Shown here: one piece after another, positions 44,399 to 55,703 of the stretch
Layout of the letters: every line of letters begins with the position of its first letter
How positions within the stretch are numbered: the stretch's first letter is position 1
Assembly: GCA_950295325.1 (NCBI GenBank)
Contig: OX485803.1
Coordinates: 16,928,001 to 16,992,000 of the forward strand
Direction: 5' to 3'
Source: Polytrichum commune
Taxonomy: Eukaryota > Streptophyta > Polytrichopsida > Polytrichales > Polytrichaceae
DNA: 64,000 nt
Made by a program: the position numbers and the translations under genes
The notes under the pieces: generated by a model
Seen by the model: only the letters and a program-made list of their open reading frames with translations
Told to the model about the DNA's origin: nothing
Database searches by the model: none

Positions 44399-45082
44399 GT
44401 AAGTTGACACGTTAATTTGTTTTCTCATTAGTTGCACATAGGCACACACATAGTCTTAGACACATCATAGCATTGATAGGTTTGTTAGGATAGTAAGCAA
44501 AATGAAGGTTGCATATGCAACCTACCTTGTTATCATTATGTGGCTAGTACTAGCCACACCATACTGGATATACTCTCATAGTGTCAACTCTCACACCACA
44601 TGGGAATGCCTTACAAACTCTTGCTTTAAAAACACATATAAGAACATCATAAATCCAAAGGTATGGTATAACAACCTTAATGTTCATAACATAAATGAAT
44701 GTTCCATTAGAAATAATGGATCCGTGGTAGTAACGGTAGATGCTTGTGCTTTTAGTTATACTTGCCTCAAATGCTTAGGAGATGAATGGAATGTTAGAGT
44801 TGTGACAAATCATAATCTACATAAAAGCACTTACAACCAATTTGTAAATACTAATATGAAGATTCATATGAATAGGAAAAGGTGTTATCATAGGATGAAT
44901 GCAAGTTGTACTCATACTAGTACTCATATGATGTTAGAAAGTGCAAATCACTTCTTCTTTCACTCTCAATTCCTAGGAGGCCCACAACTTAATTTGTGGA
45001 AAGGAATTAGAGGAAAGAAAATAAGAAGTATACCTCATTCAAAACTAAAGTACAAAACGTTTGTTTGCTTTGCTTATATCAG
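44399..45082 (+). other. candidate intron over the ORF1 leader
   Basis: A consensus donor (TTG/GTAAGTT, GT at 44399) and a pyrimidine-rich acceptor (GCTTTGCTTATATCAG, ending at 45082) bracket 684 bp. Splicing would remove the first 194 codons of the long frame and place an ATG (45084, MATITPTSSS) one base after the junction. This is inferred from splice-site quality alone. A nearer acceptor (TTCTCATTAG, about 44431) would give a much shorter intron and keep the long form. Confidence 0.35.
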
Positions 45083-46703
45083 AATGGCAACCATCACTCC
45101 AACCTCATCATCCCGTAAGTTGTTTGAAAATGAAAATATAGATTCTACAAGTGGAAAACGTCCAGTGCTTGCTGTGGTATTGTCAAGTCAAAAGAAGGTT
45201 AAAGGAATAGCACCCACTGAGAGAACACGCCCCCCCTATTGGCTAGGTTTTCAAGCTATGAACACAATTGCAAAATTTGCTAACATGCCTCTCATTCAAA
45301 CACCTTCTTTCACTGAGTTAGTCAAAAAAGGTATGTGTGAGTCTGAAGCACATGAAATGGTGGAGTCATCTCCCTCCTTTCCGTTCGTTGCCCAAGAAGA
45401 GTGGCCTTCTATACGAACGGATGGTAAGGAGGGAATGCACTACAATCTCACCCAGATTCCTTCGGATGTGGAAGTGGGTGACCATGGATTTGCTTTGGAC
45501 TATCACATATCTATCCATTTTGAAATTGAAAGAATAGAATTGGATAGAGATGTGATACTCAACTTAACAAAGGATAGATTAAAAACAATGAGGATAGAGG
45601 TCGGGGAAGTTCTAGGAGAGCCCATAGCTGTCCTTTGTTTTCATGGGACCAAAAGATGGAGTGGAATTATTAAACTCCACCTTAAAAACCCTGAAATGGA
45701 TGGATATGGCCTTCTCTGTGGATTGAGACCTTTCATCCTCAAGCTTGGCCAATTTACACATGCTATAGGCAAAGTGTGTAAATCCTTTGATACCATTGCA
45801 ATTGCATCCATGCTCTCCGTCAAAATCACAGCCCCGTCAATCAAGGGTAAAGAATGGTATGATTTGTTTGTAGAAATAGTTGGGGATGGATTTCGACGGG
45901 GCCTTGACTTTGAAATAACGAATGTGCAAAAATCGGTGGATGCAGAGTTTGATTGGATTAAAGCACCCTCTCCAGAGGAAGCCAAAAGAATTAAAGCACT
46001 CAAACTTTCATTTTTTAATGAAATAGTAGATGTAAACTTTGCAAGTAATGAAAAACTCTCAGAAGATGATAAAGCCCGAAAGAATGCACTCATTCTAATC
46101 GCCCGTAACCTCAATAAGGTAAAAACAACCATGCAAATCGAAGAAGGAATCCGAAAATGCATGGGAGAACTAAATGTTCTCGGTTTTTACTTTAAACTTG
46201 AGAACGGGAAGCATACGGGCTCATGCAATGTCCAATGCCTCAACTCGTTTGTCTACAAGAAATTTGTTAAGAAAAATGAAAAAATATTTGGTAAATATGT
46301 TGAATTTACCCCCCATCCAAAAAATCTAGACGGGATAAATGCACCTAGTAAAGAAGAGCTAGTTAGACTTGGATTTTCAGACGTGAACACCGCACTTGCA
46401 AACACCATCCAAGCTCTGGAGAATGGACCGCACCAAAACATCACCAACAAAGATCTCAACAAAATGGTAGAAGCAGCGGTAAAAAAGGAGACGGATGAAA
46501 TACGAAAAGAAATGGTGAACCTTAAAGATGAGATTGTGCAAGAGGCTAAGGTTTATGCCGACCATGTGCAAGCGGAGTCAAACAAGAATTCCAAGCTCCA
46601 AATACAACTCCTTCAAAGGCAAATGAAGATTACCTTGGATGCTATAGAAGCGGCTCATCCGGACATATCGGAAATTGAAAACAATATGGACTTGACAAAC
46701 TAA
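44502..46703 (+). CDS. LINE ORF1 protein, 733 aa, intact
   Basis: The open frame runs from ATG 44502 to TAA 46701-46703. The first about 28 residues (MKVAYATYLVIIMWLVLATP...) look like a signal peptide or membrane anchor. A Cys-rich part follows (WECLTNSCF, DACAFSYTCLKC, KRCYH, NASCTH) to about residue 190. From M195 the protein changes to a soluble, charged type. The middle (about 350-600) has no family I recognise. Residues about 645-725 are Lys/Glu-rich with heptad-like spacing and probably form a coiled coil, as in many LINE ORF1 proteins that bind their RNA as multimers. Base composition is balanced, unlike the G-poor ORF2 that starts about 20 bp downstream. The functional start may be M195, if the upstream intron is real. 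The N-terminal 194 codons are nevertheless open, which is unlikely by chance at this AT content. Confidence 0.7.
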   Translation: MKVAYATYLVIIMWLVLATPYWIYSHSVNSHTTWECLTNSCFKNTYKNIINPKVWYNNLNVHNINECSIRNNGSVVVTVDACAFSYTCLKCLGDEWNVRVVTNHNLHKSTYNQFVNTNMKIHMNRKRCYHRMNASCTHTSTHMMLESANHFFFHSQFLGGPQLNLWKGIRGKKIRSIPHSKLKYKTFVCFAYIRMATITPTSSSRKLFENENIDSTSGKRPVLAVVLSSQKKVKGIAPTERTRPPYWLGFQAMNTIAKFANMPLIQTPSFTELVKKGMCESEAHEMVESSPSFPFVAQEEWPSIRTDGKEGMHYNLTQIPSDVEVGDHGFALDYHISIHFEIERIELDRDVILNLTKDRLKTMRIEVGEVLGEPIAVLCFHGTKRWSGIIKLHLKNPEMDGYGLLCGLRPFILKLGQFTHAIGKVCKSFDTIAIASMLSVKITAPSIKGKEWYDLFVEIVGDGFRRGLDFEITNVQKSVDAEFDWIKAPSPEEAKRIKALKLSFFNEIVDVNFASNEKLSEDDKARKNALILIARNLNKVKTTMQIEEGIRKCMGELNVLGFYFKLENGKHTGSCNVQCLNSFVYKKFVKKNEKIFGKYVEFTPHPKNLDGINAPSKEELVRLGFSDVNTALANTIQALENGPHQNITNKDLNKMVEAAVKKETDEIRKEMVNLKDEIVQEAKVYADHVQAESNKNSKLQIQLLQRQMKITLDAIEAAHPDISEIENNMDLTN

Positions 46704-46723
46704 TTTCGACAAACATCCCGGCG

Positions 46724-48064
46724 GTGTATAATTATAAATTACTTATAGTATATTTATATACTAAAAACAAAACCATTATTAAATTATTAATATATACTAA
46801 AAATAAAACCCTACCTATAGTATTCATGAATACTAAAATTCACAAAGAAAACCCCCCCAACACCTCACAAAAACAAATCTATTTACTCACAATACAACAA
46901 TATCCTAACCAATACAACAAAGTACACAATACGGCATCGGCCTACCGGCCTCGCCACAAAATAAAACTAACAAGATATATACACTACAACTCCCTCAACC
47001 CCATCATTAACACAATCACAAAGCCTACCCACCAACATACTAAACCTATACACTACCTCCCAAAAACTACACAAAAAACAATAATTGCCTTACCTAATCT
47101 ATTTACAAGAAGTAAATATAAACTACTCGCCCTAAATAAACCTCACCTCAACATCAAACACCATCACAAACCCTATTTCAAACACCTATTAAACCCTCAT
47201 TCAAAATACCAACCTCACCCAAAAGATACAATGGCCTCGGCCTACCGGCCTCGCCACACAAATAATAAATACCACTTCATAAATAACTGGAGACCTAACT
47301 CAATAACAAGCCAAAAATCTATAAAAAATACAAACTCACACTTCTCACCCAAACAAATAGAAAACATCATACACGCTATACCTAACCTCTTTACTACAAC
47401 CAAGTTCACAATCATAATATATCTAAAAACACACATGAAAAATCCAAAAACACTCCATTCCCACGGATACTACTTTATTAACAAACTAGAATTGCTAAAA
47501 TGCGGGGACATAGAACCCAACCCCGGACCAATGCCTAACATCCTACATACACACCCTGCTACACACAAAAAAAGAGCCAACATCTACTTCATTCCAAACA
47601 CTATAAAACTACAACCTGAATACCAACACATAGCAAACACATTTACCCCCATACTAAAAAACACACACCCACTACACCCTCAAGCAATAACCATCTACCC
47701 GCATCTACATCAATATATCCAAACACAAAGGCAATCACCACTAACCCATATGCTATACGCTCTAATCATCACCATCCACCCCTCAATAGACACATGCAAT
47801 AACATACTAGCCCAACCCCAAAACTACCACTTTAATAACATATGGACGAACACACTGATTATCAGACTGGCCAACCTCACCAACCCCCCTGAAAGGCATA
47901 TATCAACACCTCACCCCTACACAACTTTTGTAGAAAACAATCAAGATATAATATACCCAAAAAATTCAATACACACAGAGATATATGAATTTATCCACAA
48001 CCAAGATACTACACCAACACCAATCACCTTCAAAATAAATTTCCCTTCCTCCCAAATCAATTGA
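46724..48064 (+). CDS. ORF2 N-terminal part, duplicated module plus 2A
   Basis: The 446-codon open segment contains two related modules of about 100 residues. Both begin ASAYRPRH, and the underlying GC-rich DNA (GGCCTACCGGCCTCGCCACA) recurs exactly 300 bp apart at 46939 and 47239. Both continue with a (Y/F)-x-PK...II-A-(L/I)-PNLFT motif. The second ends in ELLKCGDIEPNPGP, a 2A-like sequence. The downstream part to 48064 is Thr/Pro/His-rich and shows no known domain. The segment would be made as a separate protein of about 235-268 residues if 2A skipping works. Function unknown. Confidence 0.6.
   Translation: MYNYKLLIVYLYTKNKTIIKLLIYTKNKTLPIVFMNTKIHKENPPNTSQKQIYLLTIQQYPNQYNKVHNTASAYRPRHKIKLTRYIHYNSLNPIINTITKPTHQHTKPIHYLPKTTQKTIIALPNLFTRSKYKLLALNKPHLNIKHHHKPYFKHLLNPHSKYQPHPKDTMASAYRPRHTNNKYHFINNWRPNSITSQKSIKNTNSHFSPKQIENIIHAIPNLFTTTKFTIIIYLKTHMKNPKTLHSHGYYFINKLELLKCGDIEPNPGPMPNILHTHPATHKKRANIYFIPNTIKLQPEYQHIANTFTPILKNTHPLHPQAITIYPHLHQYIQTQRQSPLTHMLYALIITIHPSIDTCNNILAQPQNYHFNNIWTNTLIIRLANLTNPPERHISTPHPYTTFVENNQDIIYPKNSIHTEIYEFIHNQDTTPTPITFKINFPSSQIN
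47489..47530 (+). other. 2A-like ribosome-skipping peptide
   Basis: ELLKCGDIEPNPGP matches the D-x-E-x-N-P-G-P consensus exactly, with an upstream Leu/Gly context typical of active 2A sequences. The skip would fall between Gly (47525-47527) and Pro (47528-47530), separating the N-terminal modules from the APE-RT-RNase H-RLE part. 2A-like peptides are known in trypanosome Ingi/L1Tc and in several animal CR1-like LINEs. Confidence 0.85.
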
Positions 48065-48561
48065 TCACCGAAGCACTCCGATGCCTAGAAAGCATCAACG
48101 AATATTCACACCCACCCCCATCCCCATCCCCAGCTACTCCCACACCAACCCCAAGAATTAACACCGACACCGAGCACGAAACAAACATAATAACATGGAA
48201 TGCGTCATCACTCAACACATCATTACCAAACTTACAAAGCCTAATAAACAACTCGCTAAACAACACAGCAATCATACATATCCAAGAAACCAAACTAACC
48301 GCAAATAAATCTACAAAATACATACAAAACCTATTTCCGGAATTTAAACTTATTTTCAACAACACACATGCACTCACAAGATGCATACAACAAAGAATGC
48401 CCTATACCCCCGGAAAAGGAGGCTTACTCACACTTATCCACAAGAAATATGCATTCCTTGGGAATATCACCAAAATTCCCACGCTAGTAAATATATCTCC
48501 ACACCTACAAATAATTAAAATAAACAACACGATCCACTCTGGCAAGCACACCCCATCCTAA
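48061..48561 (+). pseudogene. APE-type endonuclease domain, internally deleted
   Basis: The frame (open from 47989; shown from a TTG at 48061) contains NIITWNASSL (catalytic Asn motif at 48199), IIHIQETKL (metal-binding Glu at 48286) and GKGGLLTLI. These are the first three blocks of an APE/exonuclease III fold as in LINE ORF2 proteins. The middle of the domain is missing: after IIKINN the sequence jumps to a different frame reading HDPLWQAHPIL, which resembles the C-terminal SDHxP block. The GDFN-type block is not present. An internal deletion of roughly 100 codons at about 48528 explains this. Confidence 0.75.
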
Positions 48562-48973: not shown

Positions 48974-50260
48974 GACTTAGACGGATATATCATTGACAAA
49001 CGAGGAGAACCCCAAACTCCTCTACACACGTATTTTGACCAAGAAATATACGACTTTTGTCTTAAAAACCTAAGTAATAACAAAGCCCCAGGCCCAGACA
49101 AAATACCCAATTCAATTCTAAAAAACATGCCTCCATGCTTCCATAAATTACTCTTCTTATTTTTTAAACATTGTTATAAACAAAAACAAATCCCTGCATC
49201 ATGGAAAACCAGTTTAACAGTTTTACTATACAAAAAAGGTAACCCATCACAACTAACAAACCATAGACCTATTGCACTAGCTAACACCATATATAAATTC
49301 TACACGAGTACATTAACTTCTATCTTCTCAGCGTATGGAGAAAAATACCAAATATTACACGATAGTCAAGAAGGGTTTAGAGCAGAGAGAAGCACTTCTA
49401 GGCAAATCCAATTATTAATCGCAGCGCTTGAAGACGCAAGACTCACGAACCAAGATATATATATTCTTTACATTGACTTCAAAAACGCCTTCGGCTCCAT
49501 TGATCACGCCAGACTTTTAGCCATAATGAAAGATCTGGGATATCCCACTGACTCCATAAATCTCATAGGAAACATATATTCACAATCCTTAACAATATTC
49601 ACTGGTGAACACTTCGGTAAAACCTTACCAATCCCCATTCAAAGAGGTACAATACAAGGTGATACCCTTAGCCCATATCTATTTATCATATTCCTAGAAC
49701 CCCTCCTCAGATGGCTATAACAAGGGAATAATGGATACACTTTTGGTACATCTAAAATTACAATCTCATCAGCAGCATATGCAGATGACCTAGCAGCAAT
49801 CGCCAATAAATTAGAGACACTACAAACACAACTCAACAAACTAGACAAATTCTGCGAATGGGCAGGAATGGATCTTGGAATACCCAAATGCGCAATAACT
49901 GGATGTCCAAACAAATCCAAACTTCACCCCACAACCTTTAAAGCCCTAATCCAATCTACCAATATCAACTACAGAAACCAACCTATACCAGTCTTAAACC
50001 AACATGAACCATACACGTATCTAGGAATAAATCTTGCACCATCACTCAAATGGAAAATACAAATAAATACCACTACAGCTAAAGTAATAAAACAGTGTCA
50101 AGCCCTTGTAACATGCCCAGCTACTATGAAACAAAAAATAAACATGGCAGATACAGTCATACGTGCTGGAATAGCATACAGCTTCTACGCAGTGCCATAC
50201 TCCATACCAGCTATCAAAAAACTCGATAAAAAAATCATAGCACTTCACAAAACGATATGA
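48974..50260 (+). pseudogene. reverse transcriptase domain
   Basis: The motifs are in order: NNKAPGPDKIPNSIL (motif 0/1), PIALANTIYK, GFRAERSTSRQIQ, YIDFKNAFGSIDHA (motif A, Asp at 49475), QGDTLSPYLFIIFLEPL (motif B, 49655), AAYADDLAAIA (motif C, YADD at 49778-49789), then GMDLGIPKCAITG and HEPYTYLGINLAPSLKWK (thumb side). Two in-frame stops break it: TAA at 49718, between motifs B and C, and TGA at 50258. It synthesises element cDNA at a nicked target in functional relatives. The old relative on the minus strand has the same motifs with YVDD. Confidence 0.9.
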
Positions 50261-51408: not shown

Positions 51409-51413
51409 CAATG
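51409..51413. repeat. 5-bp duplication, left of solo LTR
   Basis: CAATG here and at 53360-53364. Confidence 0.85.
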
Positions 51414-52114
51414 TGTGAGCCCAAAAGGGTGCCCACATTTAGTCTTAGACCCTTGAAACGTTAGTTGATGCACTTTGAAGTAGCATGTTACTTCACAAAA
51501 ATATAAAAAGAGTGAAATGTTAGTCTTAGAAGTACCATGTTGTAAGAGGCTAGGATGTGAGTTGTTATTGTGTTTTTACCTTCGGAAGGATTTGAGTGAA
51601 TGAGGATAGGTAAGGAGAACTTGGATTGAGTAGTTAGTGAGTAGGCTAGTACAAATGGATGGAGACAACCAAAGTGACTCAAGAGGCAAGTGCATTCGAA
51701 TTGGGATGAATGGAGGATCACATGGAGCGCACAAGTGGACCACCTCATCATGGCCACTTAATGGGGAAGGCCCAAGGAAGAATGCAAGGTGGAGGATAAG
51801 AAAATTCTCAAAGCACCAATCAAATCACGAGTTAAGCATCGTGGTTTGAATTAAGTGGTGAGCGACGATTTGGGAAAGTAAGGGGAGAAAGTTATGGCGG
51901 CGGAAAGCGAAGGAGGCTAAGTTTGGGTTGAAGCATCCCAAGTTTGGTAAAGTGTGGTAGGTAGAAAGCCAAGGCTAGTTAAATGTTCGAATTAGGATCC
52001 TTGTTGATCATTTGAGGGAGGAAGGCTTAGAAGATAGGATTGGCGCCTACTAAGTAGGAGGAAATCTCAAGGGCTTATCGTGAGCCTTGAGGGTACTCAC
52101 CCCCTCAAGCTTAC

Positions 52115-52121
52115 TATATAA
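52115..52121 (+). promoter_or_regulatory. LTR TATA box
   Basis: TATATAA in CTTACTATATAATCCC, followed by a pyrimidine-rich stretch (CATTCTTCCCTCACTC) suitable for initiation. Confidence 0.5.
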
Positions 52122-52641
52122 TCCCTCATTCTTCCCTCACTCATCCTCTCTTTCCTTTGTGCTCCAAGGCACCCCACGAGTTATAAGTGTGGGTGTGGGA
52201 AGCCATATTGGAGCACATGTGTGTGCTTAGTTTTTAGTTTGAGAGCCAAGGCTTGTTAGCCTTGAAGAGGGCTTGACCTCTTGGTAGAATTAGTGTTGAC
52301 GTGAAGGATTTTAAAGTTAATTCATGATTCCAATTTGTGGTACTTAAAGTTCATGTTTTGAACACACGTGGTTGCAAGTTCCATGTTTAAGAGTTGAGCA
52401 CTTGATGTTGTGATGAGTGCAAAAATATACTTGTGTGGATTAGTTAGTCTTAGTGAAGTTAGGAAATTCTCTCTCTCCCTCTCTTCTCTAGGAAGTTGAG
52501 CTCTTAGAGCTCGGGAAAAAATGTGGAATTAGGTAGGGGACTTAGTGGGATTAGTGGAATTAGGTAGGTGAATTAGGGGGAGGCCTTGGAGAAGCTCTCT
52601 TTTGTTCATTTTCTGGTTTTTGTGGTTGAGGGTGGAGAAAC

Positions 52642-53000
52642 TTAGTTAGAAGTAGCCGCAGCTAAGGAGCTGGGTTCATGAAGGAGCTGGGTTTGTTTAG
52701 TTAGAAAGTAAAGAGCTGGGTTTATGAAGGAGCTGGGTTTGTTTAGTTAGAAAGTAAAGAGCTGGGTTTATGAAGGACCTGGGTTTGTTTAGTTAGAAGC
52801 TAAGGAGCTGGGTTCATGAAGGAGCTGGGTTTATGAAGGACCTGGGTTTGTTTAGTTAGAAGCTAAGGAGCTGGGTTCATGAAGGACCTGGGTTTATGAA
52901 GGACCTGGGTTTGTTTAGTTAGAAGCTAAGAAGCTGGGTTTATGAAGGAGCTAGGTTTATGTAATTAGAAAGTAAAGAGATGGGTTCATGAAGGAGCTTA
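52642..53000 (+). repeat. tandem repeats inside the solo LTR
   Basis: Alternating units of GAGCTGGGTTTATGAAG (about 18 bp) and GTTTGTTTAGTTAGAA-type segments form higher-order units of about 50-70 bp, repeated at least five times with small variants (GAGCTGGG/GACCTGGG). Confidence 0.85.
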
Positions 53001-53359
53001 GTAGATAGCCTACCTAATTAGCTCATAGACAAGTAGTTAGTTACATTATGCTAGTTAGTGTTATGTGTGGCTTTCACAAGTAAATGTATTTGAGATTGAC
53101 TATAGAGAATAGTATTTTTTTTAACACTTGCATCCTCTCTTTAAAAATAAACCACGTGCATAACTTAATGGAGAATGTGGAGCACTCTCGCGATGGCAAG
53201 ACAAAGGAAGCAAAGACCAAAGTTAAATCCAAGACCACTTGAAGGGTGAACCTTGCACTATGGACTCATCCAAGTCCAAATCCAATACCGCGGAGGAATG
53301 TGAGCCCAAACCCACTACTCGGACTACGGACGCTTAAGGGTGGGGGGTTTGGCCTCACA

Positions 53360-53364
53360 CAATG
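53360..53364. repeat. 5-bp duplication, right of solo LTR
   Basis: CAATG, the partner of 51409-51413. Confidence 0.85.
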
Positions 53365-55703
53365 GCCGACACCTCATTACCATCCCGAAAGCTAGACTAA
53401 CATGGCTATGGAAACAATTCCAATTGGCAAAAAACAACACACACGGTCTAGAACCATCTACCCAATCGTTCGAAACTGAAATTGTTTGCTTATACCAAAG
53501 GTACAAATACCGTATCCCAAAAAATGACCCACTCAAACGAGCCCAATATACAATACCAACCCAAATATTAGATCTCCTGATTACAACATTCAATATTAAC
53601 CACTCATATTTTTCATCCCCAGTTACATGCCCCACACAATTCACCCAATTCTACTCACCATTCTCGCGAGACATAATATTTGGATCCCTAGGTAAAGCGT
53701 TTGACCATAAATGGCAAGGAATCGGTTACGCACACCCTCATAATACAACAGACCTACAACAAGCTATTCACTGGGCGCGCATAGCGGCCCAAAATGATCC
53801 ATATACAATCACTATACTTATATCTCCGGATACTAATTGGTACCAAAACTCCAACCCACACACAGGCCCATTCCCAGACACACACGTCATTGCCCATTTC
53901 GCCGCTGATACGATCACGTATGAGGAACCCACAATACCCTCCGAGCTCAATACCACAAGAAAAGAACCATCTACCATACAAATATTTTGTATCCATCACC
54001 AAAACAATAACATAGGCACCTACGAACGAATGAAATTAATAAGCGACACAGCAAATAACCTCCAAATACTACAAAGTCACACACAAACTGCACCACCCAC
54101 CCCTCTAAACACCACCGTTAACCCTAGTAAAAAATGGGCTAAATCAAACTACCCAAACACACCCCTACACAATAATATCCCCACCCCACAACTTCCAAAC
54201 TACCAAACTAACTTACCGCTAAAATTCCACCCCCAATTTAGCTACTACACGGACGGATCCTTTATAAAACCCAAAGAAATTGCCCCTGGGGTATGGAGAA
54301 GAGAAAGAGCTGGATACGGTATCTATAGCCCCAAAGGCTTAAATATCGCCAAAAGACTCCATGGGCATCAAAACATACTACGTGCAGAAATGATGGCTAT
54401 ACACAAAACACTAAGAATCATCAATACAAAATTCCCTAATGAACCCGCATACATATTCACAGACAGTCTAAACGTATTATACCTACTCAATATACAAATT
54501 AAACACCCCACTCTCCACAATAGTCACCCCGACCAAACCACACTCAACTCCATGGTAAAAATCCTCCAAGACCGTACACAGCCAATCACACTATACAAAG
54601 TCAGAGCACACGTCAACATTGACGGTAATGAAAAAGCGGATAAACTAGCAAAAGCCGGGTTAGAATTAGAACACAGAATTGCCATCCACCCATACGAACA
54701 TGCCCACGCCATCCCGTACTATTACCAAAAGGACGTCTGGGCCTCGATGGCAGACGTCCCAGACAAAGGCCCAGTAAGATTCTTAGAAAAACAAATTAAA
54801 AAATATGATAGGGAAACCAATATAGCAATCATGGCCACACAAACCCCCAACACGTGTAAATGGACAGAAAATAGAGACATTGACAAAGAACTGTCCAACG
54901 AATTCTGGACAAATCCCTTAATCACAGACAAACAAAAATCATGCCTTATTAAATTCCGTACAGGAACATACATGGGTAATGCTAGAAAACAAATGTTCTT
55001 CGGTCACCAGAGGTACCCCTCTATCACATGCCCTATATGCAATTCAAACGATCCAGACACTTGGCTACATGTTCTACTGAAATGCAACCAACAACATATA
55101 CACTCACTACGAATTAAAAGACATAACAAAGCAGTCGGAGAAATTAGGAAGCTTCTAATCTCGTCCGAAAAATCCCGATGTTTTACTCTCATGAATGCCG
55201 GTACCTTCAATAATAACCCCCAAGAAAATACAGTCCCCAATTGGCTACTCCCCTGTACATGTAACACACAAAGATGTCATTGCAACGCAAGATTTCGACC
55301 TGATATACTCTGCGTTAAAGGATTACCATATCAAAATGACCCTCCCATTGACATTGACCCTAACTTCACCATACAATTTATTGAATTCACATATTGTAAC
55401 GACAGATTTTCCCCAGAAACAATAGAAGCAAAAAACAACAAATACAAACCTTTGATTGATAGTATTGCTTCCAGAGGATGGAAAATCGAACCACTTATTG
55501 TCATCACAGCTGGGGCCCGAGCTACGGCCCACATCCCATCTATGAAAATACTAGAAGAAAATCTCAAAATACCCCTGGTTACCATCAAAAATACCTTTAA
55601 AAACATTAATACCATTGCAATACAATATGCCATGTCCATCCTCCTCCATAAGAGGAGAATTGAAAACCACCAACCGCTCCCCCAAAACTTAGACCCTCCA
55701 TAA
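53360..55703 (+). CDS. ORF2 C-terminal part: RNase H, zinc motif, RLE
   Basis: This open segment continues ORF2 after the LTR. Numbering residues from the frame start at 53340, the RNase H domain spans about 300-440 with YYTDGSF (D305), RAEMMAIH (E350), FTDSLNVL (D375) and KVRAHVNIDGNEKADKLA (D434), so all four catalytic acids are present. A C-x2-C-x9-H-x4-C motif follows (C564, C567, H577, C582). A second Cys cluster (PCTCNTQRCHC) leads into RPDILCV (D655), FIEFTYCND (E682) and EAKNNKYKPLID (K698/K701), then GWKIEPLIVITAG. That order fits the PD-(D/E)xK restriction-like endonuclease of R2-type LINEs. RNase H would remove template RNA and the RLE would nick the target. No stop interrupts this part, in contrast to the RT region. 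Confidence 0.85.

What the first reader, a model, noticed from the sequence alone, without database searches (positions are those of the whole stretch)
47489..47530. Canonical 2A peptide inside a dual-endonuclease LINE
GDIEPNPGP fits the 2A consensus exactly and sits at the end of the second copy of a duplicated module, just before the enzymatic part. It would let one ORF2 translation yield an N-terminal accessory protein plus the endonuclease/RT protein. I do not know of a report of 2A in this type of element.
Basis: partly seen in the sequence, partly recalled or inferred. Interest (0 to 1): 0.85.

Follow-up and report, generated by a model that had tools for sequence, protein, structure and literature searches.

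The report
2A peptides in plant dual-endonuclease LINEs
A jumping gene in a plant genome carries, just before its enzyme part, a short peptide of the kind viruses use to make a ribosome release one protein and go on with the next; many relatives in the same genome keep it, some in tandem sets, although its effect has not been tested.

Summary
Confirmed: ELLKCGDIEPNPGP lies at 47489-47530 (+), in frame in ORF2 of a non-LTR retrotransposon, ending the second of two 300-nt modules. Relatives with unbroken ORF2 have APE motifs, reverse transcriptase, RNase H and an R2-type restriction-like endonuclease: the dual-endonuclease (Dualen/RandI) layout. The host is a green plant. The window copy is broken. 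Of 100 copies read, 81 keep D(I/V)ExNPGP; core codons have omega 0.027 on internal branches against 0.238 elsewhere, the free x position 2.0. With a motif-free query, 38 of 40 copies show it, intact or damaged, directly upstream. The genome holds 425 GD(I/V)xxNPGP sites, reversed pattern 0; p14 is E 256, Q 76, H 68, K 20. H14 and H16 are reported active in viruses (PMC12846837). Related families carry two to four motifs in one frame. Best reading: functional 2A. Against: an E-to-K lineage with unbroken ORFs; no assay. 2A in LINEs is known; this plant, dual-endonuclease, arrayed form was not found in our searches.

The parts
47489..47530 (+). 2A/StopGo-like peptide ELLKCGDIEPNPGP; predicted break between Gly (47525-47527) and Pro (47528-47530)
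   Evidence: translation; conservation and codon test over copies
46679..48064 (+). open frame with the 5' part of ORF2 in this copy (461 codons; first ATG 46826), ended by a frameshift near 48030
46931..47230 (+). module copy 1 (100 codons, begins TASAYRPRH), without a 2A motif
   Evidence: local alignment score 91 without SAYRPRH, maximum of 500 shuffles 60
47231..47530 (+). module copy 2 (100 codons, begins MASAYRPRH), ending in the 2A motif
47531..48110 (+). conserved domain after the 2A (begins MPNILHTHP, crosses the frameshift; end approximate), start of the predicted downstream protein
   Evidence: alignment A2, 27-84% identity to L001 among 8 other sequences; helical low-confidence model without a PDB fold match at E up to 0.001
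47989..48561 (+). frame with the remnant of the APE-type endonuclease; about 0.8 kb is missing at 48524-48538
   Evidence: APE motifs in L001, L002, L151
48971..50260 (+). reverse transcriptase, broken by stops ending at 49720 and 50260
   Evidence: PF00078, stops
53304..55703 (+). 3' part of ORF2 after an inserted stretch: PCIF1_WW-like region, RNase H, zinc finger and R2-type restriction-like endonuclease
   Evidence: fold match of the same region of L001 to R2
44460..46703 (+). open frame upstream of ORF2 (probable ORF1; start codon not settled), overlapping the ORF2 frame by 25 nt

Best explanation
The motif is a working-type 2A (StopGo) sequence of a plant dual-endonuclease non-LTR retrotransposon. 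As the ribosome makes the ORF2 polyprotein, the nascent ...LLKCGDIEPNPG stalls in the exit tunnel, is released at the last Gly, and translation resumes at Pro, so that the leader is shed and a separate protein beginning with Pro, carrying the post-2A domain, APE endonuclease, RT, RNase H and restriction-like endonuclease, is made from the same ORF. In related families two to four such sites in a row would cut the leader into pieces. Shown: motif, frame, position, selection on the peptide, recurrence, arrays. Inferred: that skipping happens, its efficiency, and that its main use is to free the enzyme from a changeable leader.
For: Exact fit to D(V/I)ExNPGP with Gly before Asp and an L-rich upstream hexapeptide (consensus and L-rich classes from PMC12846837; match of the hexapeptide judged by eye). 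81 of 100 copies keep D(I/V)ExNPGP. Internal-branch changes: core 21 synonymous, 2 nonsynonymous; x position 2 and 8; other codons 205 and 187 (core against rest, one-sided Fisher p 1.2e-4). Motif-free query: 38 of 40 copies have the motif, intact or damaged, directly before the domain, a domain whose members fall to 27% identity. p14 is E, Q, H or K in 420 of 425 sites; H14 and H16 recur here and are reported over 95% active in viral contexts in reticulocyte lysate. 36 of 44 neighbouring H/Q motif pairs are spaced by a multiple of three.
Against: No translation or expression data. 20 of 425 sites have K at p14, among them two copies with open frames of 2924 and 2663 codons; K was not among the variants flagged as functional in PMC12846837, so skipping may be dispensable in that lineage, or K may work. 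8 of 40 copies have a damaged NPGP-type core and 2 of 40 none in that frame; 9 of 100 lack NPGP. Q14, common in arrays, is reported only 26-56% active as a mutant, and in L005 Q14 is the last motif before the enzyme. On terminal branches the core is less protected (20 synonymous, 10 nonsynonymous), as expected of dead copies. All codon tests use related copies of one genome.
Confidence: 0.82

Rival explanations
1. The motif is kept as an ordinary protein segment (a turn or domain boundary of the ORF2 protein), and no skipping takes place.
For: It sits at the start of a conserved domain in 38 of 40 copies; K14 copies with unbroken ORFs exist.
Against: The pattern of constraint is that of 2A: x free (omega 2.0) inside a nearly frozen core, recurrent replacements H14 and H16 that are known active variants, and the same motif with different downstream residues (PLSHI, PPTHI, PMPDI) within arrays.
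Confidence: 0.1
2. The 2A works as a leaky switch of protein targeting, as reported for sea-urchin 2A signal sequences: skipped products go to one place, unskipped ones to another because of a hydrophobic leader.
For: 19-residue segments with mean hydropathy of 1.6 or more before the last 2A in 3 of 9 ORFs examined (L002, L005, L006); precedent in PMC4981915 (passages).
Against: None in 6 of the 9, among them L001 and the window copy; the crude hydropathy scan is no signal-peptide test; the peptide between the 2As is poorly conserved in two families.
Confidence: 0.05
3. Conservation acts on the nucleotides (an RNA signal) and not on the peptide.
For: A GC-rich 18-mer in leaders of these elements is found in all three frames relative to the motif, so nucleotide-level signals do exist nearby.
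Against: The 2A core varies at synonymous positions (21 synonymous changes against 2 nonsynonymous on internal branches) and keeps the peptide.
Confidence: 0.03

Closest known systems
2A-bearing non-LTR retrotransposons: L1Tc of Trypanosoma cruzi (Heras 2006) and APE-type elements of multicellular organisms (Odon 2013)
   Same: 2A-like peptide encoded in frame with proteins of a LINE, with the same DxExNPGP core (known here only from citing passages and reference titles; neither paper was held)
   Different: Titles name L1Tc and APE-type elements; ours also carries an R2-type restriction-like endonuclease, lives in a green plant, often has Q, H or K at p14, and in some families has two to four motifs in tandem
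Dualen/RandI dual-endonuclease LINEs (Kojima and Fujiwara 2005; reported from green algae)
   Same: APE plus restriction-like endonuclease and RNase H (ours; theirs: PMC4640811 passages)
   Different: NPGP does not occur in the main text of the two Dualen-naming papers searched for it (PMC4640811, PMC8226300); the original paper was not held, so whether known Dualen elements have a 2A is not settled
Viral StopGo/2A sequences, among them picornaviruses with several 2A-NPGP sites
   Same: Tandem NPGP sites in one ORF; L-rich upstream motif; H14 and H16 variants (PMC12846837 sections 9, 10, 14; PMC11512398 passages, and start of abstract)
   Different: Retrotransposon of a plant; PMC12846837 reports almost no StopGo in plant viruses

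Membership tests
2A / StopGo peptides | core (D/G/C/N)(V/I)ExNPGP | tested here: met
   window motif; 81 of 100 copies D(I/V)ExNPGP; only 7 of 40 in the more diverged set, where H14 prevails
2A / StopGo peptides | suitable upstream context (for p12 = D: L-rich with Gly at p11) | tested here: met
   ELLKCG here, LILLCG, LLLQCG, IILLGG in relatives; compared by eye with the L-rich classes of PMC12846837
2A / StopGo peptides | selection on the peptide, not on the nucleotides | tested here: met
   core omega 0.027 on internal branches, x position 2.0
2A / StopGo peptides | ribosome skips the Gly-Pro bond | not testable with these tools
   needs a translation assay
Dualen/RandI dual-endonuclease LINE | APE-type endonuclease N-terminal of RT | tested here: met
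   QETK, GDFNRD, NSDH motifs in all three ORFs checked, L001, L002, L151; profile matches are weak: Exo_endo_phos in L151 at 22.6 bits, cut-off 24.5, none in L001; exodeoxyribonuclease III model E 0.005 and 0.007, far under its cut-off
Dualen/RandI dual-endonuclease LINE | restriction-like endonuclease at the C-terminus | tested here: met
   model of the last 296 residues of L001 (6 sequences, mean pLDDT 64.4): the 6 PDB matches with E up to 0.001 are all R2 proteins; RPD, IEF and KxxKY motifs
Dualen/RandI dual-endonuclease LINE | RNase H domain | tested here: met
   PF00075 over its cut-off in L001 and L151
Dualen/RandI dual-endonuclease LINE | RT groups with Dualen in a phylogeny | tested here: inconclusive
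   closest solved RTs are R2; no Dualen sequence was at hand for a tree

The most novel reading that the evidence does not exclude
A land-plant LINE lineage uses natural StopGo on a large scale, in part as tandem arrays of up to four sites of graded strength (mostly Q14 upstream, H14 or E14 before the enzyme), to peel a rapidly evolving leader off a dual-endonuclease replicase in several pieces; the H14 form, rare in viruses, has become a common form here, and an E-to-K14 form is either a new active variant or a natural loss.
Probability: 0.5. Interest if true: 0.78.

Novelty: new variant of a known kind. Interest (0 to 1): 0.64.

Why it matters
PMC12846837 describes natural StopGo use as mostly viral, rare in cellular genes and practically absent from plant viruses. 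Here one plant genome holds 425 sites of the form GD(I/V)xxNPGP, with p14 variants at high copy. That is a natural collection of plant-evolved 2A sequences, it shows which core replacements to test, and it offers a way to ask what skipping is for in a retrotransposon.

Tried and rejected
Chance match: rejected (425 sites against 0 for the reversed pattern). Single odd copy: rejected. Bias from searching with the motif: checked with a motif-free query. Two 2A sites in the window family's duplicated module: not so, copy 1 lacks it. Homology of the window's module to array modules outside GDIxxNPGP: mixed, 0, 4, 81 and 108 of 500 shuffles reached the score for four modules picked by hand, so not claimed. 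Relatives in IMG/VR: 12 stretches matched a pattern, none was confirmed. Fold of the post-2A domain: low confidence (mean pLDDT 62.5, pTM 0.45), no PDB match with E up to 0.001. Leader as a conserved membrane protein: hydrophobic segments in 3 of 9 ORFs only. A first codon test of array families included two loci (L116, L136) whose upstream part is out of frame in the fixed frame; they and L141 (long indels) were dropped, and one search's values for the first 2A should not be used. A fixed ORF1-ORF2 frameshift: the frame relation differs between copies, not pursued.

Literature: searches, of which only listings and starts of abstracts were seen; several listings were capped (20 of 13,515; 25 of 44; 20 of 839; 15 of 45). 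Rao 2025, Odon 2013, Luke 2014, Heras 2006 and Kojima 2005 were not held, so a plant 2A could be listed in them.

Full report
OBSERVATION. Window 47489-47530 (+) reads ELLKCGDIEPNPGP in the open frame 46679-48064. It ends the second of two adjacent 100-codon modules (46931-47230, 47231-47530). Without the shared SAYRPRH the two align with score 91; the maximum of 500 shuffles is 60. Module 1 has no 2A. The copy is dead: against L001 about 0.8 kb is missing at 48524-48538 and about 1.9 kb is inserted between 51413 and 53359, there is a frameshift near 48030 (translations compared), and stops end at 49720 and 50260.

WHAT ELEMENT. A search of the window's genome (408 Mb, 64 contigs) with 98 residues around the motif scored 150 of 698 candidates, and all 150 matched. 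L001 has an open ORF2 frame of 2625 codons, L002 and L003 of 2924 and 2663. Order in ORF2: leader, 2A, post-2A domain, APE, RT, PCIF1_WW-like region, RNase H, zinc finger, restriction-like endonuclease. Pfam gives RVT_1 and RNase_H over their cut-offs in L001 and L151; Exo_endo_phos appears in L151 only, at 22.6 bits with a cut-off of 24.5. APE motifs QETK, GDFNRD and NSDH are present in the three ORFs checked, L001, L002 and L151. The closest solved RTs are R2. A model of the last 296 residues of L001 (6 sequences, mean pLDDT 64.4) has 6 PDB matches with E up to 0.001, all R2 proteins. This is the Dualen/RandI layout; no RT tree with known Dualen was possible. The host has chlorophyll a/b-binding proteins (58 matches) and LEAFY DNA-binding domains (6 matches), so it is a green plant; that LEAFY marks the land-plant line, and a guess of an n = 7 moss from seven large contigs, are recalled, not tested.

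CONSERVATION. Of 100 copies read (100 of the 150), 81 have D(I/V)ExNPGP (77 with Gly before it, one with a stop there), 8 have K at p14, 3 have H at p16, 8 have other changes; 91 keep NPGP. Parsimony on a tree of these copies plus the window copy: on internal branches the seven fixed core codons have 21 synonymous and 2 nonsynonymous changes (omega 0.027), p15 has 2 and 8 (2.0), the 83 codons outside the 2A and the six codons before it have 205 and 187 (0.238). Of these 83, the 20 upstream ones have 0.299 and the downstream ones 0.215. On terminal branches, where dead copies decay, the core has 20 and 10 (0.142) and the rest 158 and 198 (0.327). One-sided Fisher tests of core against rest: p = 1.2e-4 internal, 0.015 terminal. 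These tests treat changes as independent.

CHECK WITHOUT THE MOTIF IN THE QUERY. The query begins just after the motif and holds none of it (150 of 607 candidates scored). For ranks 17-56 (40 of 150 matches) the 14 residues before the match were read in the match's frame: 7 canonical GDIExNPGP, 16 GDIHPNPGP, 4 GDIEPHPGP, 2 GDIHPHPGP, 1 GDIQPNPGP, 8 with a damaged NPGP, 2 without a motif in that frame (one of these, L142, has GDIESNPGP one base out of frame). The downstream domain falls to 27% identity among nine sequences.

VARIANTS. Genome-wide GD(I/V)xxNPGP: 425 sites, reversed pattern 0. By p14: E 256, Q 76, H 68, K 20, other 5. On contig C1, 94 sites give p15 P 35, T 27, S 15, L 13 and four others. 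PMC12846837 (abstract and introduction, sections 9, 10, 14, other passages) finds a p15 bias that includes P, S, T and L among viral StopGo, reports H14 and H16 over 95% active and E14Q 56% or 26%, and does not flag K14. That this plant family tolerates some of the same uncommon replacements as viruses speaks for the same constraint, the ribosome tunnel (inference).

ARRAYS. L005 has three motifs and L006 four in one frame (in L006 one is HRDIELNPGP and one has Y14); L008 and L009 have two each. Among four long-ORF loci, L151 (the same place as L009) and L153 have two in the long ORF, L150 and L152 one (L151 has one stop before its C-terminal domain, L153 one before its first listed motif). 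Using the complete H and Q lists, 39 of 68 H sites have another H or Q site within 1.6 kb upstream, Q in 36 of them; 5 of 76 Q sites have one (3 Q, 2 H); over all 44 neighbour pairs 36 distances are multiples of three. E sites were not part of that count. On C1, 12 of 80 loci have two or more exact motifs. So the commonest order is Q first and H later: from published mutant data, a weaker site followed by a strong one (inference). L005 is an exception, with Q, H, Q.

LEADER. In two array families the peptide between the 2A sites has dN/dS 0.76 (4 loci) and 0.53 (3 loci), against 0.14 and 0.12 after the last 2A. The last-2A core is 0.32 and 0, the first-2A core has no change in one family and four synonymous, no nonsynonymous in the other; these are few changes. 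Hydrophobic segments occur before the last 2A in 3 of 9 ORFs examined. In the window's family the nearest leader codons are moderately constrained (0.299). So the leader is not clearly a conserved accessory protein, nor is one excluded; the best guess is that the 2A frees the enzyme from a changeable leader. This is inference.

AGAINST. No assay. K14 occurs in more than one sequence context (by eye), and one K lineage has unbroken ORFs. Either K works here or skipping is not essential there.

NOVELTY. 2A in LINEs is known from Heras 2006 and Odon 2013 (seen here only in citing passages and reference lists; not held). In the listings, some of them capped, no title or abstract start speaks of a 2A in a Dualen/RandI element or in a plant retrotransposon; the two Dualen-naming papers searched for NPGP do not contain it in the main text (PMC4640811, PMC8226300). 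Rao 2025 could not be read. Rated a new variant of a known kind.

Noticed in passing
window 46938-46955 and 47238-47255; 289 exact copies in G000: GC-rich 18-mer CGGCCTACCGGCCTCGCC recurs in leaders of these elements (289 exact copies, reversed pattern 0). On C1, 61 of 71 copies lie within 4 kb upstream of an exact 2A motif on the same strand, in all three frames relative to it (38, 15, 8), next to E- or K-type motifs only. This suggests a nucleotide-level signal, read as AYRPRH in the window family and, by eye, as RPTGLA in L007; it could form a 4-bp hairpin (by eye).
   Followed up: partly
L001 ORF2 residues 1871-1966; window frame 53304-55703: Region between RT and RNase H matches Pfam PCIF1_WW over its cut-off in L001 (E 3e-10) and in the window (1e-11), under it in L151; a family named for a CTD-interacting factor (a cap methyltransferase, recalled) inside a retrotransposon.
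   Followed up: no
window 44460-46703 against 46679; L001, L002, L006: ORF1 and ORF2 frames overlap by about 25 to 160 nt with differing frame relation (-1 in L001, +1 in L002 and L006), which argues against one fixed frameshift and for reinitiation or another way of ORF2 translation.
   Followed up: no
window 51413-53359: About 1.9 kb inserted into the window copy between its RT part and its RNase H part, absent from L001; nature not examined.
   Followed up: no
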